Assembly (NCBI RefSeq): GCF_011758655.1 | Contig: NZ_JAAMPA010000001.1 | Span: 1,550,001 to 1,614,000 of the forward strand | Length of the DNA stretch: 64,000 nucleotides | Source: Modestobacter marinus | GTDB lineage: Bacteria; Actinomycetota; Actinomycetes; Mycobacteriales; Geodermatophilaceae | Direction of reading: 5' to 3' | In this document: piece after piece, positions 6,158-49,685 of the stretch | How positions within the stretch are numbered: the stretch's first letter is position 1 | Layout: every line of letters begins with the position of its first letter | Translations under genes and position numbers: made by a program | The notes under the pieces: model-generated | Told to the model about the DNA's origin: nothing | Databases searched by the model: none | What the model saw: only the letters and a program-made list of their open reading frames with translations

Positions 6158-6320
6158 GCCACCGTCTTCGGGTCGTGCGCCATCGGCGCGGGGGTCCGCG
6201 CGAGCGCGTGCCTGCGAGAGGTGGTGCGGCGGTGCACCGGGGGCGGCCGGCGGGAGGGCGTGGCCGCAGGTCGGCGACGACCCGGGCGGCGGGCTCCTCC
6301 ACGTGGACGCCCGGGACAAT

Positions 6321-11659: not shown

Positions 11660-11856
11660 GCCACCGTCTTCGGGTCGTGCGCCCGCAGGCGCTGAGGGAG
11701 AGGCGCCGCAGGGCGCCAGGAGAGCTGGGTCGCGCGGCGTCCGGGGACGTGCGCGTCATCGGTCCGACATCGGGGGTGCAGCCGCCGGGGGCGGGGCCCG
11801 GAACGTCGGTGGTCCGGAGTCGACGGGCCGCTGTGCCCGTCGTCGTCCGGAACAAC

Positions 11857-23402: not shown

Positions 23403-23479
23403 GGAAGGACCCCGTCCTCCTCATCCCTCGCACGCTCGGGACGAGCCTCTGGACGGGGCCGGACGACAGGAGTACGCGG

Positions 23480-24601
23480 ATGCGTGATGTGCTTGACGAC
23501 CTGGTCGGGTGGTGGCAGGCGGGGGAGACCGTCGGCGTGGGCACCGTGGTGGGCACCTGGCGGTCCGCGCCGCGCCCGGCCGGCGCCTCGATGCTGGTCG
23601 GCCCGGACGGGACGGCGGTGGGCAGCGTCTCCGGCGGCTGCGTCGAGGGCGCGGTCTACGCGGAGGCGCAGGACGTCGTCGCCAGCGGCGCACCGACCCT
23701 GGAGCGGTACGGGGTCAGCGACGACGACGCCTTCGCCGTGGGCCTGACCTGCGGAGGGATCCTCGACGTCTACGTGGAGGCGATCTCCCGGGAGTCCTTC
23801 CCCGAGCTCGGTGACGTGGCCGCGTCGGTCGGTGCGCACGAGCCGGTCGCCGTCGTCACCTGCGTCCGGGGCCCCGCCGACCGGCTGGGCAAGCGGCTGG
23901 TGCTCTGGCCGGACCGCGCCTCGGGCACCCTCGGCCTCCAGCGGCTGGACGACGCCGTCGCCGACGACGCCCGCGGCATGCTCGCCGCCGGCCGGACGGC
24001 GACCCTCACCTACGGCCACGACGGCGAGCGGCGCGGCGACGAGCTGACCCTCTTCGTCTCCTCGTTCGCCCCGCCGGCCCGGATGGTGGTGTTCGGCGCC
24101 ATCGACTTCGCCGCCGCCGTCGCCCGGGTGGGGTCCTTCCTCGGCTACCGGGTCACCGTCTGCGACGCCCGGCCGGTGTTCGCCACCGCCCGCCGCTTCC
24201 CCGACGCCGACGAGGTGGTCGTCGAGTGGCCGCACAAGTACCTGCAGTCACAGGTGGACGCCGGGGCGATCGACGAGCGCACGGTGCTGTGCGTGCTCAC
24301 CCACGACCCGAAGTTCGACGTCCCGCTGCTGGAGGTCGCGCTTCGGCTGCCGGTCGCCTACGTGGGTGCGATGGGCTCCCGGCGCACCCACGACAAGCGG
24401 CTGGCGCGGCTGCGCGAGGCCGGCTTGGGTGAGGACGAACTGGTCCGTCTCGCCTCACCGATCGGGCTGGACCTGGGCGCCCGCACCCCGGAGGAGACCG
24501 CCGTCTCGATCGCCGCGGAGATCATCGCCGGCCGGTGGGGCGGCACCGGCGAGCGGCTGGCCGAGGTCGCCGGCCCCATCCACCGCACCGCCGACCGCTG
24601 A
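23480..24601 (+). CDS. xdhC: XdhC/CoxF-family molybdenum cofactor maturation protein
   Basis: A 373-residue protein with an N-terminal XdhC/CoxI domain (GSVSGGCVEGAVYAEAQ, then LTCGGILDVYVE) and a C-terminal Rossmann XdhC_C domain ending AYVGAMGSRRTHDKRLARL. XdhC proteins bind the molybdenum cofactor and promote its sulfuration before insertion into xanthine dehydrogenase-type enzymes. Cysteines in both GGC and TCGG are present. It follows the MoxR-VWA pair by 77 bp. Together these are an accessory set whose target enzyme must lie outside the window. Confidence 0.9.
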   Translation: MRDVLDDLVGWWQAGETVGVGTVVGTWRSAPRPAGASMLVGPDGTAVGSVSGGCVEGAVYAEAQDVVASGAPTLERYGVSDDDAFAVGLTCGGILDVYVEAISRESFPELGDVAASVGAHEPVAVVTCVRGPADRLGKRLVLWPDRASGTLGLQRLDDAVADDARGMLAAGRTATLTYGHDGERRGDELTLFVSSFAPPARMVVFGAIDFAAAVARVGSFLGYRVTVCDARPVFATARRFPDADEVVVEWPHKYLQSQVDAGAIDERTVLCVLTHDPKFDVPLLEVALRLPVAYVGAMGSRRTHDKRLARLREAGLGEDELVRLASPIGLDLGARTPEETAVSIAAEIIAGRWGGTGERLAEVAGPIHRTADR

Positions 24602-26836: not shown

Positions 26837-27775
26837 TCAGTCGAGCAGGGAGCGCACCGCCGCCGGTGCCTGGGAGGGGCGGTGCAGCTCCGCCGACCGG
26901 CCGCCACCGGCCGCAGCCAGCGCCGCGCACGCCTCCGCCGAGCCCGGCTCAGCGGACAGCGCGAGCACGTGCAGCCGAGCCCCGGCGCGGGCCAGGGCCG
27001 CCGCTGCCGGGACCGGGTCGGGGCTGTCGGTGGGCATCCCGTCGGACAGCAGCAGCACGTCACGGGCGGCGGTGCGGGTCCGGGCCAGCTGCTGACCGGC
27101 CGTCCGGAGCGCCAGGTCCAGGTCCGTCGTCCCGCCGCCGCGCAGGTCGAACAGCCGGTCGACCACGACCTCCGGGCGCGCTGCCGCCGTCAGCGGCTGG
27201 AGCACCACCACGGTGGACCAGAACGCCACCACCGCCAGCTCGTCGCCCGGCCGCATCCGCTGGGCCAGCGCCGCGGCCGTCAGGACGGCGGCCGCCAGCT
27301 CGTCACCGGCGACGGACCCCGACGCGTCGACGACGAGCACGCAGGCCCGGCCGGTCGCCCGCCAGCTGCGGGTGTGCAGGTGCTCGGCCCGCCAGTGCGG
27401 CTCCGCGCCTCGGGCGGCGAGGGTGGCGTCCAGGTCGATGTCGGCGCCGGTCGGGTCGCGGCGGGTGACCACCCGCCGGCTGCCTGCCCGGTCGGGCACG
27501 CCGGTGCGCGGGACCGTGACCGGCAGCCGCGCGGCCAGCGTGCGGGCGGCGGCGCGCAACCGGGGGTCGAAGGCCCGGCCCAGGGCGGCCACCAGCCGGG
27601 CCGCCGCGTCGGGGTCCCGGCCGGCCAGGTCGGCCAGCGCCTCCTCGTCCAGCTGGCCGGCCTCCGGGCTGACCTGGGTGAACTCGGCATGCGTGCGGGC
27701 CAGCTGGTCGCGGCTGGCGCCCCGGGCGCCCTGCCGACGGAGCAGCTCGGCGACCTGGTCGGGGTCCTCCACCAC
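26837..27775 (-). CDS. VWA domain protein (partner of MoxR at 27874)
   Basis: A 312-residue protein ending in a von Willebrand A domain with intact MIDAS (VVDASGSVAGDEL, about residues 162-174) and a later LLLSDGMPTDSPDP. The N-terminal third is helical with DAAARLVAALGRAFDPRL. The same frame stays open upstream through a Pro-rich stretch to the MoxR stop but contains no ATG or GTG before 27778. The protein may therefore be longer and start at a CTG overlapping the MoxR stop. It is third in the unit alcohol dehydrogenase - MoxR - VWA, resembling BchI/BchD-like ATPase-VWA pairs. Confidence 0.82.
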   Translation of the reverse strand: MVEDPDQVAELLRRQGARGASRDQLARTHAEFTQVSPEAGQLDEEALADLAGRDPDAAARLVAALGRAFDPRLRAAARTLAARLPVTVPRTGVPDRAGSRRVVTRRDPTGADIDLDATLAARGAEPHWRAEHLHTRSWRATGRACVLVVDASGSVAGDELAAAVLTAAALAQRMRPGDELAVVAFWSTVVVLQPLTAAARPEVVVDRLFDLRGGGTTDLDLALRTAGQQLARTRTAARDVLLLSDGMPTDSPDPVPAAAALARAGARLHVLALSAEPGSAEACAALAAAGGGRSAELHRPSQAPAAVRSLLD

Positions 27776-27873
27776 CGACGGCGGCCCCGGGCGCGCGCCC
27801 GGGGGTGCAGCGCCGGGCGGTGGCGGCGACCCCGGCCCCGGCTCGTCTCCCCGGGGCTCGTCCGCCTCCGGGG

Positions 27874-28731
27874 TCAGGGTTTTCCCAGCTCCTCACCGGC
27901 CTGTCGCCAGATGTCGGAGACGACGTCCTCGACCGGCCGGGTCAGCCCGTCCGAGACGGTGACCTTGCCGGTGAGCGCGGCCAGGGCGGCGTCCGCGCCG
28001 GTGCGCTCGTCCACCTCGGTGCTGCCGCGGACGACGGCGAGCTCCGTGGCGATCAGCACGGTGTCGATCGCGCCGCGCACCGAGGACCCGATGCGCAGTT
28101 CGGGGTGGTCGCGGGTGATCCGGACGGCCCGCACGGCGCGGCTCATCAGCGCGTCAGGGCTGCCGGTGGCCGCGGCGACGACGGCGCGCTCGGCGTCCTC
28201 GTCCTGGTAGCCCATCGCCACCCGGCAGGACCGGTCGTACAGCGCCGGGGTGATGCGTGCGGTGCCGACGGCGTCGAACGGGTTCATGGCCGCGACCAGC
28301 CGGAAGGTCGGGCGGGCCGGCACCCGGCCGAACCGAGGCACGTGCATCTCGCGCTCGGAGAGCACGCCGAGCAGCACGTTCATCGTCTCCTCGGGCACCC
28401 GGTTGAACTCCTCGACGTAGAGGAGCGCGCCCTCGGTCATCGCCCGGGTGAGCGGGCCGGGCACGAAGTTCTCCGGGCGGTAGTCCTCGCTGAGCACCCG
28501 GGAGGCGTCGTGGTGGCCGACCAGCCGGGTCGGGGTCAGCTCGGCGTTGCCCTCGACCAGGACGAGCGGCACGCCGGTGCCGTCGGCCAGCGCGCGCAAC
28601 AGCGTCGTCTTCCCCGTGCCCGGTGGGCCCTCGAGGACGACGTTCCGCCCGGCCGACAGCGCCGCGGCGACCACCTCCGCCTCCCGGACCCGGGCGACGA
28701 CCCGCTCCTGGGCGGTGCGGACCATCCCCAC
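27874..28731 (-). CDS. MoxR-family AAA+ ATPase downstream of NDMA-alcohol dehydrogenase
   Basis: A 285-residue AAA+ ATPase. Walker A is EGPPGTGKTT (about residues 34-43) and Walker B LLYVEEFNRVPEE (about 103-115), with sensor segment LVAAMNPFDAVGT. The stretch VEGNAELTPTRLVGHHD and the YRPENFVPGPLTRAM segment are shared nearly word for word with the MoxR at 48660, so these two form a subfamily distinct from the CoxD-like ones at 21389 and 41612. The start is uncertain (GTG 28731 or ATG 28725). A strong hairpin separates it from the dehydrogenase gene. Its likely client is that dehydrogenase. Confidence 0.87.
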   Translation of the reverse strand: MGMVRTAQERVVARVREAEVVAAALSAGRNVVLEGPPGTGKTTLLRALADGTGVPLVLVEGNAELTPTRLVGHHDASRVLSEDYRPENFVPGPLTRAMTEGALLYVEEFNRVPEETMNVLLGVLSEREMHVPRFGRVPARPTFRLVAAMNPFDAVGTARITPALYDRSCRVAMGYQDEDAERAVVAAATGSPDALMSRAVRAVRITRDHPELRIGSSVRGAIDTVLIATELAVVRGSTEVDERTGADAALAALTGKVTVSDGLTRPVEDVVSDIWRQAGEELGKP

Positions 28732-35369: not shown

Positions 35370-35385
35370 TGTGACCGGGCTCACG
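35370..35385 (+). promoter_or_regulatory. CRP-like site upstream of the iron-type alcohol dehydrogenase
   Basis: TGTGACCGGGCTCACG matches the TGTGA-N6-TCACA consensus of CRP/GlxR-type regulators with one deviation at the end. It lies 89 bp before the ATG at 35474. The promoter would thus be under cAMP-type or related control. Confidence 0.5.
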
Positions 35386-35473
35386 GCGCGGGTAGGCTGC
35401 CGAGTCGTCGCCCGCGACGTCCGGAGGCCGATGTGATCGCTCAGCGTCGAGCGTGCACCCCCGAGAGGGCCGC

Positions 35474-36667
35474 ATGACGACGGTCCTGCGCCCCGGACCG
35501 GCCGCACCGGCCCGCACCTCGGGCACCACCAAGTACCTGGTGCCCGAGGTGGTGTTCGGCTGGGGGGCGCTGTCCGAGGCGGGGTTCGCCGCCCGCCGGC
35601 TCGGCGGCCGGCGGCCGTTCGTGGTCACCGACGGCGGGCTGGTCGAGGCCGGCTGGTGGCACGAGCTGACCGGCCACCTGGCCGAGGCGGGGCTGCGGCC
35701 GACGGTGTGGCAGGGGCTGACCCCCAACCCCAAGGACCACGAGGTGGCCGCCGGTGCGGAGCGCTACCGGGAGAGCGGCTGCGACGTGATCGTGGGCCTG
35801 GGCGGCGGCTCGGTGATCGACGCCGCCAAGGCCATCGCCGTGGTGGCCAGCAACGGCGGGTCGATCCTCGACTACGAGGGCGTCGACCGGGTGCGCACCG
35901 CGCTCCCGCCGACGGTCATGTGCCCGAGCACCGCCGGTACCGGCGCCGACGTCTCGCAGTTCACCGTCATCACCGACACCACCCGCCGGCTGAAGGCGAC
36001 GCTGATCGGGCGGGCCCTGGTGCCCGACATCTCGATCACCGACCCCCGGCTGCTGACCACCATGCCCGCCGACCTGGCCGCGGCGACCGGCCTGGACGCG
36101 CTGACGCACGGCGTCGAGGCCTACGTCTCGCGCGCCTCCGGCCCGCTCACCGACGTGCACGCCCTGCACGCGATCGAGCTGATCTGCGGCTCGCTGCGCC
36201 ACACGCTGCGCCACCCCACCGACGAGGCGGCGCGGACCGCGATGGCGCAGGCGAGCCTGGAGGCAGGGCTGGCCTTCACCAACGCGATCCTGGGCGCCAC
36301 GCACGCGATGAGCCACCAGGTGGGCGGCCTGCTCGACCTCCCGCACGGGGTGGTCAACGGCGTCCTGCTGCCGCACGTCATCCGGTTCAACGCCCGCACC
36401 GTGCCCGACCGGTTCGTCCCGATCGCGCGGGCCATGGGCCTGGACGTCGCCGGGTTGCCGGCCGACGTGGCGGCGGAGCTGGCCGCCGACGCGGTCGGCC
36501 GGCTGGCCGCGGAGCTGGGCTGCCCCCGGGGGCTGGCCGAGCTGGGCGTCCGGGACGCCGACGTCGACGTGCTGGCGAGGACGACGCTGGGCGACGCCTG
36601 CCTGTCCACCAACCCCCGGGACGCCGACCACGCCGACGTCGCCGCGCTGTTCCGCGCCGCCCTCTGA
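35474..36667 (+). CDS. Iron-containing (group III) alcohol dehydrogenase, ErcA-like
   Basis: A 397-residue metal-dependent alcohol dehydrogenase. The nucleotide-binding motif GGGSVIDAAKA is at residues 110-120. Metal ligands are suggested by LDALTHGVEAYVS, GATHAMSHQVGGLLDLPHG and the intervening His residues. The ATG at 35474 has GAGAGGG upstream. Its stop overlaps the start of the adjacent sensor kinase gene, and a response regulator follows. This arrangement recalls the Pseudomonas Erc system, where an iron-type dehydrogenase (ErcA) next to a kinase takes part in control of ethanol oxidation. A sensory or regulatory role rather than bulk catalysis is therefore possible. It differs clearly from the methanol dehydrogenase at 42931. 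Confidence 0.88.
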   Translation: MTTVLRPGPAAPARTSGTTKYLVPEVVFGWGALSEAGFAARRLGGRRPFVVTDGGLVEAGWWHELTGHLAEAGLRPTVWQGLTPNPKDHEVAAGAERYRESGCDVIVGLGGGSVIDAAKAIAVVASNGGSILDYEGVDRVRTALPPTVMCPSTAGTGADVSQFTVITDTTRRLKATLIGRALVPDISITDPRLLTTMPADLAAATGLDALTHGVEAYVSRASGPLTDVHALHAIELICGSLRHTLRHPTDEAARTAMAQASLEAGLAFTNAILGATHAMSHQVGGLLDLPHGVVNGVLLPHVIRFNARTVPDRFVPIARAMGLDVAGLPADVAAELAADAVGRLAAELGCPRGLAELGVRDADVDVLARTTLGDACLSTNPRDADHADVAALFRAAL

Positions 36668-38031
36668 TGCCGCCCCCACCCGGATCGGCCATGCCGGGCA
36701 CGGTCACGGGCACCGCCCCGCCGGGGATCAGCGAGCTCACCGGGCTGCGCTCGTCCAAGCCCAGCTGGTACGCCGAGTACCGGCACACCGCCGACAGCCT
36801 GCACCGGGCGCTGGGGTCGCTGGAGCACATCGCCCGCGTGCTGTCGGCGACCGGGCAGGGCGCCGGTGCGCTGTGCCGGGCGGTGGTCGACGCCTGCGCC
36901 GAGCACCTGGGCGCGCCGTGGGTGGTGCTGGCGCTGCGCGAGGCCGCCCTGCCGCTGGCCCGGCCGCGGCTGCTCGGCCGCGGGCCGGACGGCACGCCGG
37001 TCGGGGACCTCCCCGGGCTGCCGGGGGACGTGCGCCGGCCGGTGGCCGAGGCGCTCGCCGCCGCCGCGGTGGAGCCGTGGCAGACCGGCGACGGGGCGGT
37101 CGTCGTCCCGCTGGTGGTCGACGGTGAGCCGGTCGGCGCGCTGGTGGCCTGCGGCGGACCGCAGCAGCCGGCCTCCCCGGCCGACCTGGCGATCCTGCGG
37201 GTCGTGGGCAACCAGTCGGCGGTCGCGCTGCTGTCGGACCACCTGCTCGCCGGGTCCGAGGCGCTGCGCCGGCAGACCGAGCAGCTGTACGCCGAGGCCG
37301 AGCGGCGGGCGCAGGACCTCGCCGACCGGCACCGGGAGCTGGCCGAGGCCGAGCTGCGGCTGGACGTCGCCGCGCGGCGGGAGGCGGTGGACGCCGAGCG
37401 GCACCGGATCGCCCGGGAGCTGCACGACAGCGTCGCCCAGCACGTCCTCTCGGCCGGCATGACCATCGAGTGGTGCCGGCCGGAGGTGGCCCACCACGCG
37501 GAGGTGCACGCGCGCCTCGGGCACGCCAAGGCGCTCACCCGGGAGGCGGTCGAGCGGCTGCGGGTGGCCATCCACGCGCTCTCGGCCGAGCCGCACGACG
37601 AGCCGGGGCAGGGCCTGCCGGTGCTCCTCGGCCGGTTGCCCGACGTGCACGCGGTGCCCGGGCTCGCGGTCGCCGTCCGTGTCGAGGGCCGGCCCCGGTC
37701 GCTGCCGGCCGACGTCGAGCACTCGCTGTTCCAGATCGCCTCCGAGGCGCTGTTCAACACGGTGCGGCACGCGGCGGCGACCCGGTGCACGGTGCGGCTG
37801 GCCTACCGGGCCGCGGAGCTGCGGCTCTCCGTCGCCGACGACGGCCGCGGCGACCCCGAGGTGCTCCGCCGGATGCTGCGCACCGCCGGCCGGGACAGGG
37901 GCCAGCACCGCGGCCTGGCCAACATGGCCTCCCGCTGCCGGGACGTCGGCGCGACCCTGCGCTTCGGCCGGGCCCGGCTGGGCGGGGTGCGGGTGGAGGT
38001 CCGGCTGCCGCTGGAGGCCGGGGGTGGCTGA
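36667..38031 (+). CDS. GAF-domain sensor histidine kinase (NarL-type system)
   Basis: A 454-residue cytosolic kinase without membrane segments. A GAF-like domain spans about residues 60-200 (VDACAEHLGAPWVVLALRE ... LVACGG), followed by a coiled coil (EQLYAEAERRAQDLADRHRELAE). A HisKA_3 H-box comes next (RIARELHDSVAQHVL, His near 253), and an HATPase domain with N-box ASEALFNTVRHAAATR. The ATG overlaps the dehydrogenase stop (TGATG). It should phosphorylate the RR encoded next. Because it is coupled to an alcohol dehydrogenase, the signal is probably an alcohol, an aldehyde or redox state. Confidence 0.9.
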   Translation: MPPPPGSAMPGTVTGTAPPGISELTGLRSSKPSWYAEYRHTADSLHRALGSLEHIARVLSATGQGAGALCRAVVDACAEHLGAPWVVLALREAALPLARPRLLGRGPDGTPVGDLPGLPGDVRRPVAEALAAAAVEPWQTGDGAVVVPLVVDGEPVGALVACGGPQQPASPADLAILRVVGNQSAVALLSDHLLAGSEALRRQTEQLYAEAERRAQDLADRHRELAEAELRLDVAARREAVDAERHRIARELHDSVAQHVLSAGMTIEWCRPEVAHHAEVHARLGHAKALTREAVERLRVAIHALSAEPHDEPGQGLPVLLGRLPDVHAVPGLAVAVRVEGRPRSLPADVEHSLFQIASEALFNTVRHAAATRCTVRLAYRAAELRLSVADDGRGDPEVLRRMLRTAGRDRGQHRGLANMASRCRDVGATLRFGRARLGGVRVEVRLPLEAGGG

Positions 38032-38665
38032 GCAGATCCGGCTGGTCATCGTCGACGACCACGCCATCGTGCGGCAGGGGCTGCGGTCGATCCTGGAACG
38101 GGAGCCGGGGATCGAGGTCGTGGGCGAGGCCGCGACCGCCGAGGAGGCCCTGGACCTGGTCGCGGCGACCCGGCCGCACATCGTGCTGCTGGACCTCAAG
38201 CTGTCGGCCGGCTCCGACGTCGAGGGCCTGGCCCTGTGCGGGCGGCTGACGGCCCGGGCGCCGGCCCCGGGGGTGCTGGTGGTCACCACGTTCCTGGACC
38301 AGCGGCTGGTGCTGGAGGCGATCCACCAGGGCGCGCGCGGCTACGTCCTCAAGGACGTCGACGCGGTGGCGCTGGTCGCCGCGATCCGGGCGGTGCGCCG
38401 GGGCGAGAGCGCCTTCGACAGCCACAGCGCCGCCGTCGTCGTCCGGTCGTTGCACGCTCCGGCGCCCGCGACCACCGACCTGACCGCCCGGGAGCGGGAG
38501 GTGCTGGCGCTGCTGGCCCGGGGGCTGTCCAACGAGGCCATCGGCCGGGAGCTGTTCATCTCGGCGACGACGGCGAAGTTCCACGTGCACAACCTGCTCC
38601 GCAAGCTGTCGGTGTCCCGCCGTGCCGAGGCGGTCTACGCCGGGTCGAAGCTCGGTCTCATCTGA
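38024..38665 (+). CDS. LuxR/NarL-family response regulator
   Basis: A 213-residue regulator with a receiver domain (phospho-acceptor Asp57 in VLLDLKL, acidic DD at 11-12, Lys in GYVLKDVD) and a C-terminal LuxR HTH (LTAREREVLALLARGLSNEAIG, then TAKFHVHNLLRKLSV). The GTG start lies inside the kinase gene, 8 bp before its stop. The 3' end overlaps the DUF389 gene on the other strand by 31 bp. It is the natural candidate to switch on the alcohol dehydrogenase and methanol dehydrogenase promoters of this region. Confidence 0.92.
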   Translation: MAEQIRLVIVDDHAIVRQGLRSILEREPGIEVVGEAATAEEALDLVAATRPHIVLLDLKLSAGSDVEGLALCGRLTARAPAPGVLVVTTFLDQRLVLEAIHQGARGYVLKDVDAVALVAAIRAVRRGESAFDSHSAAVVVRSLHAPAPATTDLTAREREVLALLARGLSNEAIGRELFISATTAKFHVHNLLRKLSVSRRAEAVYAGSKLGLI

Positions 38666-40053: not shown

Positions 40054-40108
40054 GGGCTCAGCGGGACGGGCTCGGCGGGGCGGGCTCAGCGGGACGGCTC
40101 AGCGGGAC
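40054..40108. repeat. Four tandem 14-bp units at the 3' end of the VWA gene
   Basis: GGGCTCAGCGGGAC (40054), GGGCTCGGCGGGGC, GGGCTCAGCGGGAC and a last 13-base unit follow head to tail. The stop codon of the VWA gene lies in the last unit, so every intact unit repeats a potential in-frame or out-of-frame stop (TCA on the plus strand). It looks like slippage-driven expansion of the gene end. Confidence 0.75.
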
Positions 40109-41610
40109 GAGGCGCGGGTGACCACGTCGGTCGCCCAGCTGTCCAGCGCCGAGTGGTCGCGGACCACCTCCACCCGGTCGCAGCTCTCCGCGTACGCCGG
40201 CAGGTCGCAGCCCCCCAGCGCCCAGCTGTACCGCGGCTCCGGGGTCAGCCAGATCGTCTCCCGCACCCGGCGGGTCAGGTCGGCGAAGACGTCCAGCCGC
40301 GGGGCGTTGCCGTTCCCGCGGCCGTCCCCGAGCACCAGCAGCGTCGACCGGCGGGTGAAGGCCCCGGAGTGGTCGGCGGCCAGGGTGGCGAACGCCGTCC
40401 CGTAGTCGCTGGCGGCGTCCACGTCGATGACGTCGCCCCCGAAGACCAGGCCCAGCGCGTGCTCCAGCGGGTGCTCGTCGAACAGGTCGGTGATCTCCAC
40501 GACGTCGTCGACGAAGGCGAAGGTGCGCACCTGGGCGAACAGGTCCTGCAGCGCGTGGACGACGTGCAGGGTGAACCGCGCCGTCGCCCGCACCGACAGG
40601 CTGACGTCGGCGACCACGACCAGCCGCGGCTTGTCCTCCGCCAGCCGGGTGGTGACCGGCCGGAACGGGACGCCGTCGTAGCGCATGTTGCGCCGCATGG
40701 TGCGGGCCACGTCGATCCGGCCGCGCGGCGACTGCCGCTTCTTGTGGGTCAGCCCGCCGTGCAGCGTGCCGGCCAGCCGGCGCAGCGACTCCTCGATCCG
40801 GGCCCGCTCCGCCTCGGTCACCTTCTCCACCGGCGCCCGGGCCAGCTCCCGCTCCTCGACGGCCAGGTCGGTCATCTCGGCGAGCTTCTGCAGGTGCGCG
40901 GCCAGCAGCTCGGGGAGGTCCTCGATCACCCCGGCCAGCTGGCGGCGCAGCAGCTCGGCGACCTCGGGGTCCAGGTCGCCGGTCGGGTCGGCCAGCCAGT
41001 CGCGCAGCGCCTGCTGCTGGGCCACCGTCAGCTGGGCGTCCAGCGGGGTGCCGCCGCCGCGCACCAGCTCGCCGGGCAGGCCCGGGTCGTGCAGCCGCTC
41101 GACCTCCAGCTGGACCTTCTGCGCCTCGGTGGCGTCCCCGCCACCGCTGTCGGAGGAGAGCACGATCTGCTCGGTCAGCGACGCCAGGTCGATCCGGTTC
41201 GCCTCCTGGTGCAGGTTGTACTGGGTGGCCAGGTCCTCCGGCCGGAAGAACTCCTTGATGTCCACCGGCTTGCCGTGGCTGTGCCCCTCGGCCACCTCGG
41301 CGTCCGGGTCCGGCGACCAGCTCATCCGGGTCAGCTCCCCGGTGTCGGCCAGGTCGTCGTGGCTGTGGCCGTGCTCCTCCTCGGCCGGCAGCACCGGCCG
41401 GAGGGTGAAGAACCGGGCGAAGGTGTCGGCGAAGACCTCGGCGTCCCGCCGGTCCTTGAGCAGTGCCGCCCCCAGGGCGGCCTCCAGCGCGGCCCGGTCG
41501 CGCAGCCCGACGGCGGTGGCCGCCGCGAAGGCGTCCAGCGCCTCCGCGGTGGAGATCCGCATGCCCCGCAGCCGGAGCAGCCGGACGAAGCGGTGCAGCG
41601 CCCCCTCCAT
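40099..41610 (-). CDS. VWA domain protein downstream of methanol dehydrogenase and MoxR
   Basis: A 503-residue CoxE-like protein with an N-terminal helical part and a C-terminal VWA domain whose MIDAS reads ADVSLSV (about residue 335). Two small histidine clusters occur early: EEEHGHSHDDL (80-86) and EGHSHGKP (109-115). The His-rich tail of the MoxR encoded before it is of the same type. The ATG is one base after the MoxR stop, so the two are coupled. The conserved middle part contains HKKRQSPRGRIDVARTMRRNMRYDG. It probably forms a complex with that MoxR ATPase to activate or metallate the methanol dehydrogenase. Confidence 0.87.
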   Translation of the reverse strand: MEGALHRFVRLLRLRGMRISTAEALDAFAAATAVGLRDRAALEAALGAALLKDRRDAEVFADTFARFFTLRPVLPAEEEHGHSHDDLADTGELTRMSWSPDPDAEVAEGHSHGKPVDIKEFFRPEDLATQYNLHQEANRIDLASLTEQIVLSSDSGGGDATEAQKVQLEVERLHDPGLPGELVRGGGTPLDAQLTVAQQQALRDWLADPTGDLDPEVAELLRRQLAGVIEDLPELLAAHLQKLAEMTDLAVEERELARAPVEKVTEAERARIEESLRRLAGTLHGGLTHKKRQSPRGRIDVARTMRRNMRYDGVPFRPVTTRLAEDKPRLVVVADVSLSVRATARFTLHVVHALQDLFAQVRTFAFVDDVVEITDLFDEHPLEHALGLVFGGDVIDVDAASDYGTAFATLAADHSGAFTRRSTLLVLGDGRGNGNAPRLDVFADLTRRVRETIWLTPEPRYSWALGGCDLPAYAESCDRVEVVRDHSALDSWATDVVTRASSR

Positions 41611-41611
41611 C

Positions 41612-42853
41612 TCAGACCGGACGGCGCCGGGCGCTGCCGCCGCGGGTGCCGGAGAACGACCGGGAGCCCTGGCCGCTGCGCACCTCCCGCGGCGTCGCCG
41701 GTGCGTCCGCCGGGCCGCCGCGGGCGCCGTAGGAGTCGTCGTGCCGGCCGGGCCGGTCCTTGGCCGCGCGCACCCGCTTCCCGTCGTCCTCGCCACCACC
41801 AGAACGGCCGTTCTGGTGGGGGGCGGGGTCGTGGGAGTGGGAGTGGCCGGCGTGGTCGTGCGGGCCGTGGCTGTGCGGGCCGTGGTCGTGCGGGTGGGCG
41901 GGCACGGTGGCGTTGGGGTCCAGCAGGCGGGGGAGGGCCTCGCGGGAGCGCTGCACGTCCCGCTCGTACTTGGCCACCACCGAGACGGTGTCGGCGAGCA
42001 CCCCGGCGTCCAGCTCGCTGACGCCCAGCACCGCGAGGGTGCGGGCCCAGTCGATGGTCTCGGAGATGCTCGGTGCCTTGCGCAGGTCCAGGCCGCGCAG
42101 GCCGCGGACGATCTGCACCAGTCGTTGCGCGGCGGCGTCGTCCAGACCGGTGTCCTTGGAGCGCAGGATCTCCAGCTCGCGCTCGGCGTCGGGGTACTCC
42201 AGGAACAGGTGCAGGCAGCGCCGCTTCAGGGCCGCCGACAGGTCGCGGGTGTTGTTCGAGGTGAGGACGACGTACGGCGGGTCCTGCGCGACGAACGTGC
42301 CGATCTCCGGCACCGACACCTGGTACTCGGCGAGCATCTCCAGCAGCACCGCCTCCAGCGCCTCGTCGGCCCGGTCGACCTCGTCGATGAGCAGCACCAC
42401 CGGCTCCGGTGAGCGCACCGCCTCCAGCAGCGGGCGGGCGGCCAGGAAGCGCTCGTTGAAGAAGGCGCTGTCGGCGCTGGCGACCCGGTCGACCGCCTCG
42501 GCCATCGTCGTCGTCTCGGCCAGCAGCTCCGCCGCCTTGTCCCGCAGGATCTGGGTGTAGAGCAGCTGCTTGCCGTAGTCCCACTCGTACAGCGCCTTGG
42601 TCTCGTCCTGCCCCTCGTAGCACTGCAGCCGGAGCAGCCGCCGGCCGGTGGCCGCGGCGAGGGTCTTGGCCAGCTCGGTCTTGCCCACCCCGGCCGGGCC
42701 CTCCAGCAGCAGCGGCTTGGCCAGCCGGCACATCACGAAGGTGGTGGTGGCCAGCCGCCGGTCGGTGACGTAGCCGTGCGCGGCGAAGGCGGCGGCGACG
42801 TCGTCGGGGCTGTCGAACGGGGCAGGGGTGGGCTGGACGTCGGTCGCGGTCAT
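41612..42853 (-). CDS. MoxR-family AAA+ ATPase with His-rich tail
   Basis: A 413-residue AAA+ ATPase of CoxD type. Walker A EGPAGVGKTE is at residues 51-60, LQCYEGQDETKALYEWDYG follows, Walker B is VVLLIDEVDRADE, and sensor 1 is VVLTSNNTRDLSAALKRRC. After the ATPase (about residue 310) comes an extra 100-residue tail beginning with 11 histidines in 27 residues, interleaved with Asp and Ser (HDHGPHSHGPHDH), then a basic disordered part. Such a tail is a metal-binding feature and is absent from the other three MoxR proteins here. A copy of the 24-bp palindrome lies within the tail coding region. The ATG at 42853 is 77 bp after the methanol dehydrogenase stop. Confidence 0.9.
   Translation of the reverse strand: MTATDVQPTPAPFDSPDDVAAAFAAHGYVTDRRLATTTFVMCRLAKPLLLEGPAGVGKTELAKTLAAATGRRLLRLQCYEGQDETKALYEWDYGKQLLYTQILRDKAAELLAETTTMAEAVDRVASADSAFFNERFLAARPLLEAVRSPEPVVLLIDEVDRADEALEAVLLEMLAEYQVSVPEIGTFVAQDPPYVVLTSNNTRDLSAALKRRCLHLFLEYPDAERELEILRSKDTGLDDAAAQRLVQIVRGLRGLDLRKAPSISETIDWARTLAVLGVSELDAGVLADTVSVVAKYERDVQRSREALPRLLDPNATVPAHPHDHGPHSHGPHDHAGHSHSHDPAPHQNGRSGGGEDDGKRVRAAKDRPGRHDDSYGARGGPADAPATPREVRSGQGSRSFSGTRGGSARRRPV
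41796..41819. repeat. 24-bp perfect palindrome inside moxR (family 1 copy)
   Basis: CCACCAGAACGG is followed by its exact reverse complement. It is the same sequence as the core of 24633-24660 apart from compensated A/G and T/C differences in both arms. It encodes residues of the low-complexity MoxR tail (around QNGRSGG), which can tolerate an insertion. Confidence 0.78.
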
Positions 42854-42930
42854 CGGACGCGGTGCTCCCTGGGACTGGGCGGGGCGGGCGGACCGGGGGC
42901 GGGGCGGGCTGCCCCGCCCCCGGGGGAGGC

Positions 42931-44223
42931 TCAGCCGAGCAGGTCGTCCAGGTCGCCGTTCATGCAGTGCTCGACCACCGGGCGCACCGTCTCGAAGGTG
43001 CACTCCTTGGGGTTGCCCGGGGTGCAGGCGTCGCCGAGCACGTGGTGGGTGATCCGGTCGACGTCCTTGTCGTCGCCGGTGATCACCGAGGCGCCCTGGT
43101 AGAACGGCGTCGGCCCCTGGCCCAGCCGGTTCTTGGAGTAGCTGTCCTGGGTGACGTCGGTGAACTTCTCCGGGATGCCGACGTCGCGCAGCAGCCGGAT
43201 GGCCGCGGCCAGGGCGGCGTCGGCGGCCTGGACGTCGGTCATCCCGTGGGTGTCCACGCCCATCGCGGCGGCCATGTCGGCGAACCGCTTGTACTGGGTC
43301 GGCATGTTGAACGCCCACACCCGCGGCAGCGCGATGGCGTTGTTCAGGCCGTGGTGGGTGTCGTAGAAGGCCGACACCGCGTGGCTGATCGAGTGGATGA
43401 TCCCCAGACCGCCGGAGTTGAAGGCCTGCGCGGCGATGTACTGGGCGTACATCATCCCCTGCCGGCCGGCGAGGTCCTGGCCGTTCCAGACCGCCTGGCG
43501 CAGGTGCTCGGCGGTCATCTTCACCGCGTAGAGCGCGTTGCCCAGCGAGGGTGGGAAGTCCAGCCGGGAGACGTAGGGCTCGCTGGCGTGGGCGAGGACG
43601 TCGAACCCGCACTGCGCGGTGTAGTCGACCGGGCAGTCGAAGTAGAGCACCGGGTCGTCGATCGCCAGCGTGGCCAGGCAGTGGTCGTCGAAGGCCACGT
43701 ACTTGTGCGGGTTCTCCGGGTCGGTGGTGGTGTCGGTGATGACGTAGGCCCAGGAGGTCTCCGACCCGGTGCCGGCGGTGGTGGAGACGGCGATGTGCGG
43801 CGGGTTCTTCGGGTTCTCCGACTGGTTGAAGCCCTCGAACTCGTTGACGCTGCGGCCGTCGTGGGCCACCGAGATGCGGGCGCCCTTGCAGGCGTCGTGG
43901 CTGGAGCCGCCCCCGATGGAGACGAAGCTGTCGCAGGCGTTCTCCTGGTACATCCCCACGGCGTCCATGACGTTGTAGTCCTTGGGGTTGGACTCCACCT
44001 TGTCGTAGACCACCACCTCGAGGCCGTGGTACTTCATCGACTCGGCGATCTTGTGCACGATGTCGGTCCCGCGCAGGCCCGAGGTCATGATCAGGGTCTT
44101 CCTGAACCCCAGCTTGAGCGCCTCGGGGCCGATCATCTCGTGCGCCCCGGGCCCCATCATGGCGCGCGGGAACGGGTGGAACTCCTTGATCGGGAACGGC
44201 TTGAGGAGTTCTTCGACCTGCAT
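42931..44223 (-). CDS. mno: NDMA-dependent methanol dehydrogenase (group III metal ADH)
   Basis: A 430-residue decameric-type methanol:NDMA oxidoreductase, known from methylotrophic and other actinobacteria. It oxidises methanol (and formaldehyde or short alcohols) with tightly bound NAD(H), and depends on mycofactocin for re-oxidation. Visible marks are MQVEELLKPFPIKEFHPFPR at the start, GGGSSHDACKG (104-114), the motif LAHASEPYVS and the metal-ligand stretch ISHAVSAFYDTHHG. The C-terminus ends MNGDLDDLLG. The ATG at 44223 is followed by the characteristic N-terminus. A MoxR and a VWA gene follow directly. The upstream space holds a cluster of GGGCAGG boxes. Confidence 0.94.
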   Translation of the reverse strand: MQVEELLKPFPIKEFHPFPRAMMGPGAHEMIGPEALKLGFRKTLIMTSGLRGTDIVHKIAESMKYHGLEVVVYDKVESNPKDYNVMDAVGMYQENACDSFVSIGGGSSHDACKGARISVAHDGRSVNEFEGFNQSENPKNPPHIAVSTTAGTGSETSWAYVITDTTTDPENPHKYVAFDDHCLATLAIDDPVLYFDCPVDYTAQCGFDVLAHASEPYVSRLDFPPSLGNALYAVKMTAEHLRQAVWNGQDLAGRQGMMYAQYIAAQAFNSGGLGIIHSISHAVSAFYDTHHGLNNAIALPRVWAFNMPTQYKRFADMAAAMGVDTHGMTDVQAADAALAAAIRLLRDVGIPEKFTDVTQDSYSKNRLGQGPTPFYQGASVITGDDKDVDRITHHVLGDACTPGNPKECTFETVRPVVEHCMNGDLDDLLG

Positions 44224-44322: not shown

Positions 44323-44368
44323 GGGCAGGTCCGCCCACCCGGGCAGGGCGACCTGCCCGATCGGGCAG
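44323..44368 (-). promoter_or_regulatory. Cluster of GGGCAGG/CCTGCCC boxes upstream of mno
   Basis: Four copies of the heptamer or its complement occur in 46 bp: GGGCAGG at 44323 and 44341, CCTGCCC at 44352, and GGGCAG at 44363. The last two form a perfect 16-bp palindrome CTGCCCGATCGGGCAG (44353-44368). The cluster is 100-145 bp upstream of the mno ATG. It could be the target of the response regulator at 38024 or of MftR. The rest of the 274-bp divergent space shows nothing else clear. Confidence 0.5.
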
Positions 44369-45092: not shown

Positions 45093-45704
45093 TCAGTCCG
45101 GTACGCGCAGGGACGGGAAGCCGGCGGCCAGCTCGTCGAAGGCCTGGTGCAGCGCGGCGCCGAGGGTGATCCGGCCGTCGGCCAGCCACAGCTCGAAGGC
45201 CGTCGTCGCGGCGGCCCGGGTGCTCGTCGCGACCAGTCGGGGCACCAGCGCGTCCGGCGCCACCCCGGTCCGCCGCGCCACGTGCGCGGCGACGACCCGG
45301 TCGACGTCCCCGTAGCGCACCTGGGAGTGCGCGAGCAGCGCCGGCTCGGTCAGGATCAGCCGCATCCGCTGGCGCAGCGTCGGCAGGTCGGCCGCGGCGT
45401 AGTCGTTCACCTCGACGTAGGCCGCACAGATCGAGGCCAGCACCGGCTGGTCGCCGGCGGTGGCGGCGAGCATCGCCTCCAGCCGGACGACGTGACCGTC
45501 GAACTGGCCCCAGACCGCGTCGGCCTTGGTGCCGAAGTAGCGGAAGAAGGTGCGCCGGCTGATCCCGGCGGCATCGGCCACCTCGTCGATGGTCACCGCC
45601 TCGAACCCCTGGGCGGTGAACAGGTCGAGGGCGGCCTGCTCGATCCGGGCGCGGGTCTCCTCGCGGGCGTCGGCCGCGACCACCGTCTCGGTCACGGCGC
45701 CCAT
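45093..45704 (-). CDS. mftR: Mycofactocin system TetR-type regulator
   Basis: A 203-residue TetR-family repressor. The N-terminal HTH spans about residues 20-65 (RIEQAALDLFTAQGFEAVTIDEVADAAGISRRTFFRYF) and the rest forms the ligand domain. It is divergent from the mycofactocin precursor gene, the usual place of mftR. MftR proteins bind the mft promoter and are released by long-chain acyl-CoA in mycobacteria. The ATG at 45704 has GAGGGGC upstream, and a longer in-frame reading to 45782 is unlikely. A dyad between it and mftA is the expected operator. Confidence 0.9.
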   Translation of the reverse strand: MGAVTETVVAADAREETRARIEQAALDLFTAQGFEAVTIDEVADAAGISRRTFFRYFGTKADAVWGQFDGHVVRLEAMLAATAGDQPVLASICAAYVEVNDYAAADLPTLRQRMRLILTEPALLAHSQVRYGDVDRVVAAHVARRTGVAPDALVPRLVATSTRAAATTAFELWLADGRITLGAALHQAFDELAAGFPSLRVPD

Positions 45705-45759
45705 CCTGCCCCTCGGCGGCGGGGTGGTCGGCGGTCGGCGCGCTCGTCGTCCGTGCCCC

Positions 45760-45812
45760 TTGCCGGTGGCACTGGGTGTCACCTACGGTCGGCCGGGTCA
45801 GATCCGTGACCC
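45760..45812 (+). promoter_or_regulatory. mftA promoter with two candidate MftR operators
   Basis: TTGCCG (45760-45765) and TACGGT (45784-45789), 18 bp apart, can serve as -35 and -10. The spacer contains the inverted repeat GGTGGCAC-TGG-GTGTCACC (45765-45783), which matches in 7 of 8 pairs and would let a bound repressor block RNA polymerase. A second repeat, GGGTCA-6-TGACCC (45795-45812), covers the expected transcription start. Binding is inferred, not shown. Confidence 0.5.
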
Positions 45813-46346: not shown

Positions 46347-47587
46347 CCGCCGTCCTGCCCTCCCGTGACCGGCCCGTCGGTGGCCGGCTGGTCGACCAGT
46401 TCGAGTACGGCCTGGACGCCCCGATCTGCCTGACCTGGGAGCTGACCTACGCCTGCAACCTGGCGTGCGTGCACTGCCTGTCCTCCTCCGGGCGCCGCGA
46501 CCCCCGGGAGCTGTCCACGACCGAGGCCGAGGCGGTGATCGACGAGCTGCAGCGGATGCAGGTCTTCTACGTCAACGTCGGCGGCGGTGAGCCCACCGTC
46601 CGGCCGGACTTCTGGCACCTGCTGGACTACGCGATCGGCCACGACGTCGGGGTCAAGTTCTCCACCAACGGCGTGAAGCTGGACAAGGCCCGCGCCGCGC
46701 AGCTGGCCCGGACCGACTACGTGGACGTGCAGATCTCCCTGGACGGCGCCACCGCCGAGGTCAACGACCGGGTCCGCGGCACCGGCTCGTTCGCCACCGC
46801 CAGGAAGGCGCTGGAGAACCTGGCCGAGGCCGGCATGAAGGACTTCAAGGTCTCCGTCGTCGTCACCCGGGAGAACGTCTCCCAGCTCGATGACTTCAAG
46901 GCGCTGACCGACTCCTACGGTGCGCAGCTGCGGATCACCCGCTTCCGCCCGTCCGGTCGCGGCGCGGACGTGTGGGAGCAGCTGCACCCCACCCAGGCCC
47001 AGCAGCGGGAGCTGTACTCCTGGCTGCTGGCCAACGGCGAGGGCGTGCTGACCGGCGACTCGTTCTTCCACCTCTCCGCGTTCGGGGAGGCCCTGCCCGG
47101 GCTCAACCTGTGCGGCGCGGGGCGGGTGGTGTGCCTGATCGACCCGGTGGGCGACGTCTACGCCTGCCCGTTCGCCATCCACGAGCAGTTCCTCGCCGGC
47201 AACGTGCGCTCCCCCGGCGGCTTCCAGCGGGTGTGGCAGCACTCGGAGCTGTTCGCCGACCTGCGCAGCCCGCAGACCGGCGGGGCGTGCACCAAGTGCG
47301 CCCACTTCGACGCCTGCCGAGGCGGCTGCATGGCCGCGAAGTTCTTCACCGGGCTCCCGCTGGACGGCCCCGACCCGGAGTGCGTGCAGGGCTACGGGGA
47401 GACCGCCCTGGCCGCCCGCGACCTGGAGCTGGTCACGCCGAAGAGCCACATCGACCACTCGCACACCGGCCCGGTCCGCGGCCAGCCCACCCTGCTGGGC
47501 ATGCCGGGCGTCCCGGCCCGGCCCACGCCCGCACCGCCCGCCAAGATCTGCGACGAGTCCCCGCTCGCCGGCCTGCAGCTGGGCTGA
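46343..47587 (+). CDS. mftC: Mycofactocin radical SAM maturase
   Basis: A 414-residue radical SAM/SPASM enzyme. The SAM cluster cysteines are Cys38, Cys42 and Cys45 (CNLACVHC). The SPASM region holds LCGAGRVVCLIDPVGDVYACPF and CTKCAHFDACRGGC for auxiliary clusters. MftC oxidatively decarboxylates the C-terminal Tyr of MftA and then forms a C-C bond to Val. Length and motif order match the family. The C-terminus is extended by a Pro-rich tail. It overlaps mftB. In typical clusters mftD follows; here a hairpin and an SDR gene follow instead. Confidence 0.95.
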   Translation: MTAVLPSRDRPVGGRLVDQFEYGLDAPICLTWELTYACNLACVHCLSSSGRRDPRELSTTEAEAVIDELQRMQVFYVNVGGGEPTVRPDFWHLLDYAIGHDVGVKFSTNGVKLDKARAAQLARTDYVDVQISLDGATAEVNDRVRGTGSFATARKALENLAEAGMKDFKVSVVVTRENVSQLDDFKALTDSYGAQLRITRFRPSGRGADVWEQLHPTQAQQRELYSWLLANGEGVLTGDSFFHLSAFGEALPGLNLCGAGRVVCLIDPVGDVYACPFAIHEQFLAGNVRSPGGFQRVWQHSELFADLRSPQTGGACTKCAHFDACRGGCMAAKFFTGLPLDGPDPECVQGYGETALAARDLELVTPKSHIDHSHTGPVRGQPTLLGMPGVPARPTPAPPAKICDESPLAGLQLG

Positions 47588-48659: not shown

Positions 48660-49619
48660 GTGGTGACCGGCAGCCGGGTGACCGGCGACGACGGCGCGTC
48701 GGTCCGCGAGGTCCGCGAGCGGGTCGCCCGGCACCTGGTCGGCCGCGACCGCGAGCTGGACCTGCTCTTGGCCACGGTGGCCGCCGGCCGGGACGTGCTG
48801 CTGGAGGGACCGCCGGGGACGTCGAAGTCCACCCTGCTGCGCGCGATCACGGCGGAGTGGGGCATCCCGCTGTTCTTCGTCGAGGGCAACGCCGACCTGA
48901 CGCCCACCCGGCTGGTCGGGCACCACGACCCGGCCCGGGTGCTGCGGGAGGACTACTCCCCGGACAACTTCGTCCCCGGCCCGCTGGTCGACGCGATGCG
49001 CGCCGGCGGTTTCCTCTACGTGGAGGAGTTCAACCGCGCCCCCGAGGACACGCTGAACACCCTGCTCACCGCGATGGCCGAACGGCGGATCGCGGTGCCC
49101 CGGGTCGGGGTGCTCGAGGCGTTGCCCAGCTTCCGGGTGATCGCCTCGATGAACCCGTACGACAACGTGGGCACCACCCGGCTGTCCACGTCCGTGCACG
49201 ACCGGCTGTGCCGGCTGGCGATCGACTACCAGGACGCCGAGGCCGAGCGGGGGATCGTCGGCAGGCGCACCGGGATCGAGTCACCCCGCCTGGTCGCCGA
49301 CGCGGTGGCGCTGACCCGGGCGACCCGGGGCCGGGACGACGTCCGGCAGGGCAGCAGCGTGCGCGGCGCCATCGACACCGCGTTGGTCGCCGCCCAGCTG
49401 GCCGCGCTGCGTGGGGTGCCGCTGCCCGACGAGCCGGCGGTCGATCCGCCGCGCGGGCTGCCGGAGGAGTACACCGCGGTCGTCCTGGACGCCGTCCTGG
49501 TGGCGCTGTCCGGGCGGGTGTTCCTCGACGACACCGTGGAGGCCAGCCCCGAGGCGGTCCTGCACGAGATCTGGGCCGACCACTTCCTGCTGCAGCCGGC
49601 GGCCGCCGCCCCCGGTTGA
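48660..49619 (+). CDS. MoxR-family AAA+ ATPase downstream of mycofactocin SDR
   Basis: A 319-residue ATPase closely related to the MoxR at 27874. Walker A reads EGPPGTSKST (about residues 46-55), Walker B LYVEEFNRAPEDT, sensor VIASMNPYDNVGT. The VEGNADLTPTRLVGHHDPARVL and YSPDNFVPGPL stretches are shared with that paralog. The start is GTG 48660 with GAGGAA 7 nt upstream. An ATC at 48645, after a very strong GGAGGGAGG, would fit the spacing better and may indicate a non-standard start. The gap to the SDR stop is 116 bp. Its proposed client is the SDR or another mycofactocin enzyme. Confidence 0.88.
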   Translation: MVTGSRVTGDDGASVREVRERVARHLVGRDRELDLLLATVAAGRDVLLEGPPGTSKSTLLRAITAEWGIPLFFVEGNADLTPTRLVGHHDPARVLREDYSPDNFVPGPLVDAMRAGGFLYVEEFNRAPEDTLNTLLTAMAERRIAVPRVGVLEALPSFRVIASMNPYDNVGTTRLSTSVHDRLCRLAIDYQDAEAERGIVGRRTGIESPRLVADAVALTRATRGRDDVRQGSSVRGAIDTALVAAQLAALRGVPLPDEPAVDPPRGLPEEYTAVVLDAVLVALSGRVFLDDTVEASPEAVLHEIWADHFLLQPAAAAPG

Positions 49620-49685
49620 AGAGCCGTCGAGGCCGACTCGCCGGTCACCCGGCGGGACCGTCCCGGAGGCGGGCAGCCCCGGGGG

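What the first reader, a model, noticed from the sequence alone, without database searches (positions are those of the whole stretch)
35474..38665. Iron-type alcohol dehydrogenase fused by overlap to a two-component system
Dehydrogenase, kinase and regulator are joined by a 1-bp and an 8-bp overlap. The kinase is soluble with a GAF domain. In Pseudomonas the ErcA dehydrogenase and its neighbouring kinase control ethanol oxidation. Here the system sits between mycofactocin client genes, so it probably senses alcohol flux and controls them. A CRP-like site precedes the operon.
Basis: partly seen in the sequence, partly recalled or inferred. Interest (0 to 1): 0.5.

Follow-up and report, generated by a model that had tools for sequence, protein, structure and literature searches.

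The report
Dehydrogenase-paired kinase switch for methanol oxidation
Three tightly packed soil-bacterium genes, an iron-type alcohol dehydrogenase, a soluble sensor kinase and its DNA-binding partner, look like a relative of a known mycobacterial switch for methanol oxidation, and the dehydrogenase travels with the kinase so regularly that it may be part of the sensor.

Summary
ADH (35474-36667), kinase (36667-38031) and regulator (38024-38665) are intact and overlap by 1 and 8 bp; the kinase is soluble (GAF, HisKA_3, HATPase); a conserved CRP-like site precedes them. The genome is a Modestobacter. The closest characterised system is MnoSR of Mycobacterium smegmatis. The regulator passes NCBI's MadR model; the kinase falls below the MadS cut-off, which the kinase of an annotated Tsukamurella mdo operon passes. 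The likely target is the convergent operon Mno-MadB-MadC (40099-44223): in 112 family genomes, 19 of 20 with Mno carry the kinase, against 6 of 92 without. The Mno promoter holds the genome's best copy of a palindrome found in 48 of 55 distinct actinobacterial Mno promoters, centred ~137 bp upstream of Mno; the published MnoR site is also 137 bp upstream. The ADH stands beside the kinase in 80 of 80 loci found from the kinase and 10 of 10 found from the ADH in a class sample; two Rhodococcus plasmids keep ADH and regulator without a kinase. It scores best on the ErcA model (466 bits, cut-off 550), keeps its catalytic residues, and may be part of the sensor. I found no box at the other client genes checked.

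The parts
35474..36667 (+). ErcA-like iron-type alcohol dehydrogenase (ADH), proposed co-sensor
   Evidence: Pfam Fe-ADH/ADH_Fe_C; best NCBIfam model NF041833 ErcA 466 bits, cut-off 550; D208, H212, H277, H291 (metal ligands by recalled comparison with FucO) and GGGS 110-113 at least 97% conserved in 80 sequences
36667..38031 (+). soluble sensor histidine kinase, GAF-HisKA_3-HATPase (MadS/MnoS-like)
   Evidence: Pfam; NF047786 MadS 451 bits, cut-off 500; AlphaFold2 model, mean pLDDT 85
38024..38665 (+). NarL/LuxR-type response regulator (MadR/MnoR-like), D57 likely phospho-acceptor
   Evidence: NF047785 MadR 332.8 bits, cut-off 300, met; D57 at least 97% conserved in 80 sequences
35370..35384 (+). 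CRP-like site TGTGAN6TCAC upstream of the ADH operon
   Evidence: at most 1 mismatch in 20 of 22 family genomes
35393..35398 (+). -10-like hexamer (TAGGCT); TAGTCT/TATCGT-type hexamers follow the CRP-like site in many relatives
   Evidence: seen by eye, not scored
42931..44223 (-). NDMA-dependent methanol dehydrogenase Mno/Mdo, predicted target
   Evidence: TIGR04266 683 bits, cut-off 625, met
41612..42853 (-). MoxR-type AAA ATPase, MadB-like
   Evidence: AAA_5; 47% identical to the window's other MadB-model protein; frame; not itself scanned against NCBIfam
40099..41799 (-). VWA protein, MadC-like (start uncertain)
   Evidence: NF047783 257.5 bits, cut-off 600, not met; PF05762
44352..44369 (.). 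predicted regulator box CCTGCCCGATCGGGCAGC in the Mno promoter (consensus CCTGYCCGATCGGRCAGG), dyad centre ~137 bp upstream of the Mno start
   Evidence: best match in the genome, 1 mismatch; 6 other sites at 2 mismatches; 48 of 55 distinct Mno promoters within 4 mismatches of the 20-mer
44340..44359 (-). overlapping second dyad CGGGCAGGTCGCCCTGCCCG in the Mno promoter
   Evidence: exact; part of a perfect 34-bp palindrome in G078 and G081
45093..45782 (-). MftR, mycofactocin repressor (context)
   Evidence: TIGR03968 239 bits, cut-off 225
46391..47404 (+). MftC, mycofactocin radical SAM enzyme (context)
   Evidence: TIGR03962

Best explanation
An alcohol-responsive switch of the MnoSR type. 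A CRP-like activator probably sets the level of the ADH-kinase-regulator operon (inferred). The ErcA-like dehydrogenase binds or oxidises a short alcohol in the cytoplasm and, as a close partner of the kinase, passes on that alcohol is present (inferred; catalytic residues are kept and the pairing is near-constant, but contact is not shown). The soluble kinase phosphorylates the regulator on D57 (inferred from conserved residues and from published MnoS to MnoR transfer). The regulator then binds the palindrome CCTGYCCGATCGGRCAGG ~137 bp upstream of Mno and turns on Mno-MadB-MadC, the mycofactocin-linked methanol/alcohol dehydrogenase with its MoxR/VWA pair (the site is shown by comparison; binding and activation are inferred from M. 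smegmatis).
For: The regulator passes the MadR model. The kinase of the annotated Tsukamurella mdo operon passes the MadS model at 597 bits, and that of a M. chubuense plasmid at 650. In M. [quoted passage not shown] mnoSR loss abolishes growth on methanol and 1,3-propanediol (reported there from Dubey and Jain 2019) and impairs growth on ethanol (PMC11303327). In the family kinase and Mno co-occur: 19 of 20 against 6 of 92, Fisher p 2e-15, not corrected for shared descent; no link with mftC, p 0.45. In G048 and G043 Mno is gone with MadC fragments left, and in G043 the ADH is gone and the kinase match halved. Box; it stands 190-375 bp upstream of the ADH in 15 of 36 named loci with no Mno hit in the fetched stretch. 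ADH beside kinase: 80 of 80, these being the best 80 of 480 confirmed relatives, and, searched from the ADH alone, 10 of 10 in a class sample, plus two genomes of another class with ADH-kinase-regulator-ADH order. The ErcA model is best for 3 of 3 module ADHs tested; for 4 of 4 proteobacterial relatives tested the L-threonine dehydrogenase model is best. In P. putida inactivation of yiaY or PP_2683 represses the ped cluster (PMC12997753), and YiaY is proposed to sense methanol by oxidising it (PMC10308882).
Against: Kinase and ADH miss the curated MadS and ErcA cut-offs; none of 112 family genomes passes MadS. Six of 25 kinase-bearing family genomes have no Mno hit (two are MAGs of 67% and 72% completeness). 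Two Rhodococcus plasmids carry ADH (56-57%) and regulator with no kinase match in the fetched stretch. The box is absent or weak in 7 of 55 distinct Mno promoters, and was not near the ADH in any of eight Actinomycetospora loci. The box seed came from the same promoters, so one search is descriptive. The ADH keeps its catalytic residues and could be a plain enzyme.
Confidence: 0.6

Rival explanations
1. The switch controls Mno-MadB-MadC as above, but the dehydrogenase is an ordinary co-transcribed enzyme (propanediol or short-alcohol oxidation); the kinase senses alcohol, aldehyde or redox state itself through its GAF domain.
For: Metal ligands and nucleotide-binding motif intact; nearest solved structures are NAD-dependent methanol and propanediol dehydrogenases; MSMEG_6239 is called a putative 1,3-propanediol dehydrogenase and mnoSR mutants fail on 1,3-propanediol (PMC11303327); on two Rhodococcus plasmids the ADH and regulator occur without a kinase match.
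Against: In a class-wide search started from the ADH the kinase was next door in 10 of 10; among the 80 kinase-found loci the ADH is there also where no Mno lies in the stretch; the ADH is nearest the ErcA model, not the propanediol or threonine enzymes. A plain enzyme would be expected to travel alone more often.
Confidence: 0.3
2. The regulator acts mainly on its own operon or on genes elsewhere, and its nearness to Mno is a shared genomic neighbourhood.
For: The module persists without Mno in six family genomes and stands near XdhC-type genes in Pseudonocardia and Actinomycetospora and beside a monooxygenase cluster in M. chubuense.
Against: No box within 4 mismatches in the own operon's promoter in the window, and the best one at Mno; linkage to Mno is kept in both opposite-strand and co-directional arrangements; MnoR binds the mno promoter in M. 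smegmatis (PMC11303327).
Confidence: 0.08
3. Chance overlap of unrelated genes.
For: In 75% G+C DNA long spurious ORFs are common.
Against: ADH-kinase order in 80 of 80 loci from more than ten actinobacterial genera, regulator next in 79 of 80 (the other is cut by the contig end).
Confidence: 0.01

Closest known systems
MnoSR / mno operon of Mycobacterium smegmatis (MSMEG_6242-6236), and the annotated mdo operon on a Tsukamurella tyrosinosolvens plasmid
   Same: Dehydrogenase, kinase, regulator in this order and linked to Mno/Mdo (in Tsukamurella also to MoxR ATPase and VWA genes); palindrome about 137 bp upstream of mno; MadR model met
   Different: Two convergent operons here instead of one; CRP-like site and no box before the ADH operon; kinase below the MadS cut-off
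ErcA/ErcS (P. aeruginosa) and YiaY/PP_2683 (P. putida)
   Same: Related Fe-ADH co-cistronic with a histidine kinase; needed there for induction of alcohol oxidation genes (PMC12997753)
   Different: Kinase here is GAF-HisKA_3, there a hybrid histidine kinase; target here is mycofactocin-linked, there PQQ-linked; ADH here below the ErcA cut-off
NCBIfam MadB/MadC/MadR/MadS families (NF047783-NF047786)
   Same: All four models hit proteins of this window
   Different: Only MadR reaches its cut-off here; the MadB model was hit by the copy at 21389-22291, the copy beside Mno was not scanned; the source publication of these names was not found

Membership tests
MadR-family response regulator (NF047785) | score over curated cut-off 300 | tested here: met
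   332.8 bits
MadS-family kinase (NF047786) | score over curated cut-off 500 | tested here: not met
   451 bits; 0 of 112 family genomes pass; Tsukamurella 597 and M. chubuense 650 pass
MnoSR-type system | linkage to Mno/Mdo | tested here: met
   MoxR and VWA genes also present
MnoSR-type system | palindromic regulator site about 137 bp upstream of mno | tested here: met
   dyad centre ~137 bp upstream; how the paper measures its 137 bp, and its motif letters, were not available to me, so identity of the motif is untested
MnoSR-type system | dehydrogenase and kinase genes in one operon with mno | tested here: not met
   split into two convergent operons
MnoSR-type system | phosphotransfer and activation of mno on alcohol | not testable with these tools
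   needs bench work
ErcA regulatory alcohol dehydrogenase (NF041833) | score over curated cut-off 550 | tested here: not met
   466.3 bits, the best of 17 models, next 341
ErcA regulatory alcohol dehydrogenase (NF041833) | co-cistronic with a histidine kinase | tested here: met
   by gene layout; transcription not measured
NDMA-dependent methanol dehydrogenase (TIGR04266), gene 42931-44223 | score over curated cut-off 625 | tested here: met
   682.9 bits

The most novel reading that the evidence does not exclude
Actinobacteria and proteobacteria share one design in which an iron-type alcohol dehydrogenase is itself the alcohol receptor: it docks on a cytoplasmic kinase and reports on turnover. 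In the actinobacterial version a different kinase type serves the same dehydrogenase branch, contact being made by the invariant but apparently unfolded kinase segment L24-T25-G26-x-R28-xx-K31-xxx-Y35 ahead of the GAF domain. The module is portable: it sits beside Mno, near XdhC/CoxE-type genes and beside an alkene/methane-type monooxygenase cluster. MSMEG_6239, named a propanediol dehydrogenase, would then be a signalling protein.
Probability: 0.38. Interest if true: 0.66.

Novelty: new variant of a known kind. Interest (0 to 1): 0.46.

Why it matters
How the Pseudomonas kinases detect alcohols is open: PMC12997753 says it is unknown whether sensing is direct or through redox coupling with YiaY. 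A second, distantly related group of bacteria in which an ErcA-like dehydrogenase is locked to a different kinase type points to the dehydrogenase as the shared sensing part. It also gives a concrete candidate binding site and target operon for methanol oxidation in many actinobacteria.

Tried and rejected
Considered and dropped: (1) Control of all mycofactocin client genes: no box there. (2) Natural ADH-kinase fusions as proof of contact: no ADH frame runs more than 60 nt into the kinase match in 80 loci. (3) A conserved GAF cysteine (C70) as a formaldehyde/redox sensor: invariant in 12 family sequences but not at 97% in 81. (4) A recognisable sensor type from the fold: the 50 Foldseek rows shown (of 898) mostly match the kinase core; the top row is a bacteriophytochrome, a GAF-bearing kinase, but with TM-score 0.26, so nothing follows for the ligand. 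(5) The first box pattern CGGGCAGGTNNNCCTGCCCG with 3 mismatches was too loose genome-wide: 363 forward and 318 reverse matches against 134 and 126 in the control. That listing also did not show the exact window match found, so I rely. (6) The CRP-like pattern is not enriched in the whole window (10 against 7.7 expected); the evidence is its conservation at this promoter. (7) A palindrome CGGTCG-CGACCG precedes the CRP-like site in some Geodermatophilus promoters but not in this window; not pursued. (8) Paper searches for the origin of the Mad names gave only unrelated uses.

On the required re-check I ran. It showed that two Rhodococcus plasmid loci have ADH and regulator but no kinase match, and that one of the 35 opposite-strand Mno genes is divergent, not convergent. 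Because of the first I lowered the main confidence from 0.62 to 0.60, the novel case from 0.40 to 0.38 and interest from 0.47 to 0.46, and raised the plain-enzyme rival from 0.28 to 0.30 and the other-target rival from 0.07 to 0.08.

Rows dropped before counts: in the ADH promoter set G081 and G082 (their ADH-query hit is not the module ADH) were removed, and G096 (ADH cut by the contig end) and G043 (no ADH) never entered, leaving 22; in the Mno promoter set the rows without a real Mno gene in the fetched stretch were removed, leaving 19 family plus 42 named rows, six of which repeat family genomes, hence 55 distinct. The kinase was called present in the family at 250 bits or more (258-456; the next best score is 116); this counts G043, whose kinase is truncated, and G079, whose match is in two pieces. 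In L081 the adjacent ADH is a fragment at the contig end.

Papers: PMC11303327 outline, abstract, passages and sections 3 and 24; PMC12997753 passages and section 18; PMC11778925, PMC10308882, PMC10891947 and PMC7174638 passages only; other papers only as search listings. Dubey and Jain 2019 (PMC6581172) and Hempel 2013 (PMC3754586) are not held; nothing of them was seen.
Full report
What is there. The three genes stand as described. The kinase is predicted cytoplasmic: its most hydrophobic stretch lies in GAF strands of the AlphaFold2 model. A regulator start giving the 8-bp overlap with the kinase is the nearest candidate in 25 of 25 kinase-bearing genomes of the family; in 79 named loci with a regulator hit, 59 allow an overlapping regulator start. 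The ADH-kinase junction is tight (median 29 bp from the ADH stop to the codon equivalent to kinase residue 20, range 2-233, n = 80), but its exact overlap depends on an unconserved kinase start. The genome belongs to the same genus as two Modestobacter MAGs.

What it resembles. NCBIfam gives MadR for the regulator (met), MadS for the kinase (451 of 500) and ErcA for the dehydrogenase (466 of 550). A Tsukamurella plasmid carries the annotated order mdo - MoxR ATPase - VWA - Fe-ADH - kinase - regulator, with mftM facing them, and its kinase passes the MadS cut-off. For M. smegmatis the papers I saw name mno (msmeg_6242), a putative 1,3-propanediol dehydrogenase (6239), mnoS (6238) and mnoR (6236), with 6242-6238 as the operon; what 6240 and 6241 encode was not stated in what I read. 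There MnoS phosphorylates MnoR, MnoR binds the mno promoter, and mutants cannot grow on methanol or 1,3-propanediol and grow poorly on ethanol (PMC11303327; PMC11778925). So the finding is best read as an MnoSR-type system; since the kinase misses the curated cut-off and the operon is split, I call it a variant, not a formal member.

Target. In the window Mno-MadB-MadC (44223 down to 40099) runs towards the regulator gene. In the family Mno is in 20 of 112 genomes, and 19 of the 20 carry the kinase (the exception, G082, is 73% complete), against 6 of 92 genomes without Mno. mftC is in 102 of 112 and does not track the kinase. Genomes are related, so the p value overstates the evidence. Two lineages show linked loss: G048 and G043 keep MadC fragments but no Mno, and in G043 the ADH is gone and the kinase match is half length. 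The named loci are the best 80 of 480 confirmed relatives of the kinase. In them Mno is on the opposite strand in 35 (34 convergent, one divergent, L109) and co-directional upstream in 9 (Rhodococcus and Rhodococcoides); 18 carry an XdhC gene (one of them also Mno); 19 show neither in the stretch fetched.

Binding site. Upstream of Mno a palindrome recurs, mostly at about -150: 48 of 55 distinct promoters lie within 4 mismatches of ACCTGYCCGATCGGRCAGGT, while 0 of 61 reversed and 0 of 305 shuffled sequences do (the 61 rows include six repeats of the same genomes). I derived the 20-mer from these promoters, so this is description, not an independent test. More independent are these: in the 5.1-Mb genome the 18-bp core has its best match (1 mismatch) at the Mno promoter, with six other sites at 2 mismatches, 7 matches per strand against 1 in the control; its dyad centre is ~137 bp upstream of the Mno start, and the published site is 137 bp upstream of msmeg_6242 (how that distance was measured I do not know); and in named loci with no Mno hit in the stretch the box stands within 400 bp upstream of the ADH in 15 of 36, whereas the same threshold (3 mismatches) gives four sites in the whole 64-kb window. 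All eight Actinomycetospora loci lack it near the ADH, which I cannot explain.

CRP-like site. It is real and conserved in the family (20 of 22 with at most one mismatch), followed by a -10-like hexamer in many, a spacing that would suit activation (by eye). Three proteins with an HTH_Crp_2 domain over the Pfam cut-off are encoded in the genome; which one binds is unknown. In M. smegmatis the mno operon rises on glucose starvation, which fits.

The dehydrogenase. Found from the kinase, it is adjacent in 80 of 80 loci. Because that search could only show kinase loci, I searched from the dehydrogenase alone: in 296 genomes of the class, 10 besides the own genome have a match at 1e-100 or better (49-65% identity), and 10 of 10 have the kinase next door. 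A phylum-wide draw of 346 genomes (overlapping the first) added two genomes, in which two such dehydrogenases (46-51%) flank a GAF-HisKA_3 kinase and a regulator; in the one examined the open frames of the first dehydrogenase and the kinase overlap by 4 bp, and in the other one dehydrogenase match is flagged with two in-frame stops. Against this stands the plasmid collection: of its four best actinobacterial hits, Tsukamurella and M. chubuense have the kinase adjacent, while two Rhodococcus plasmids have ADH and regulator about 0.5 kb apart with no kinase match in the 13-17 kb fetched. So the pairing is near-constant, not absolute, and in both exceptions the regulator stays. Module dehydrogenases form one clade (support 100/99) apart from six proteobacterial YiaY/propanediol-type enzymes and Mno (no Pseudomonas ErcA was in that tree, so nearness to ErcA rests on model scores). 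They keep the metal ligands and nucleotide motif. In Pseudomonas, inactivation of yiaY or its kinase represses the ped cluster, and the authors leave open whether sensing goes through YiaY. I saw no paper that proposes this for the actinobacterial gene: (4 papers; passages of 3 read), in an open-access library only.

A possible docking element. Kinase residues 20-40 (LTGxRSxKxxxYxEYRx) average 0.72 identity to the majority residue, near the DHp helices (0.76) and above GAF (0.58), yet are modelled with low confidence (block means about 50-59). A conserved but unfolded segment is what a partner-binding peptide would look like. This is inference; DHp conservation is inflated because the search patterns were taken from it.

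Verdict. Observation confirmed, interpretation partly supported. The sensing chemistry and dehydrogenase-kinase contact remain unshown.

Noticed in passing
window 21389-23402, 26837-28731, 40099-42853, 48660-50618: Four separate MoxR-type ATPase plus VWA protein pairs in one window, three of them next to mycofactocin-linked dehydrogenase genes and one next to an XdhC-type maturation gene.
   Followed up: partly
L093, L094, L102, L117, L119, L125, L128, L134, L135, L138-L140, L144, L146, L150, L152, L153, L156: In Pseudonocardia, Actinomycetospora, a Pseudonocardiaceae MAG and one Nocardioides (18 of 80 named loci) the module lies near an XdhC gene; 12 of the 18 also show a CoxE-type VWA gene. 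These genes are relatives of window 22281-24601; 17 of the 18 show no Mno in the stretch.
   Followed up: partly
L170 (Mycolicibacterium chubuense NBB4 plasmid): The ADH-kinase pair sits beside a monooxygenase cluster with its own NDMA-dependent alcohol dehydrogenase; a regulator and a second GAF kinase-like gene lie between them, and the regulator match after the kinase covers only residues 5-113.
   Followed up: partly
L172, L178 (Rhodococcus plasmids): A diverged ADH (56-57% identity) is followed by a regulator with no kinase match in the stretch; transposase genes lie near.
   Followed up: partly
window 4676-6319 and 10172-11704: Two sulfate-permease-family genes 84% identical over most of their length, about 4 kb apart, perhaps a recent duplication.
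   Followed up: no
G078 and G081 Mno promoters: Perfect 34-bp palindrome GCCCGGTCGGGCAGGTGCACCTGCCCGACCGGGC, built of overlapping dyads.
   Followed up: partly
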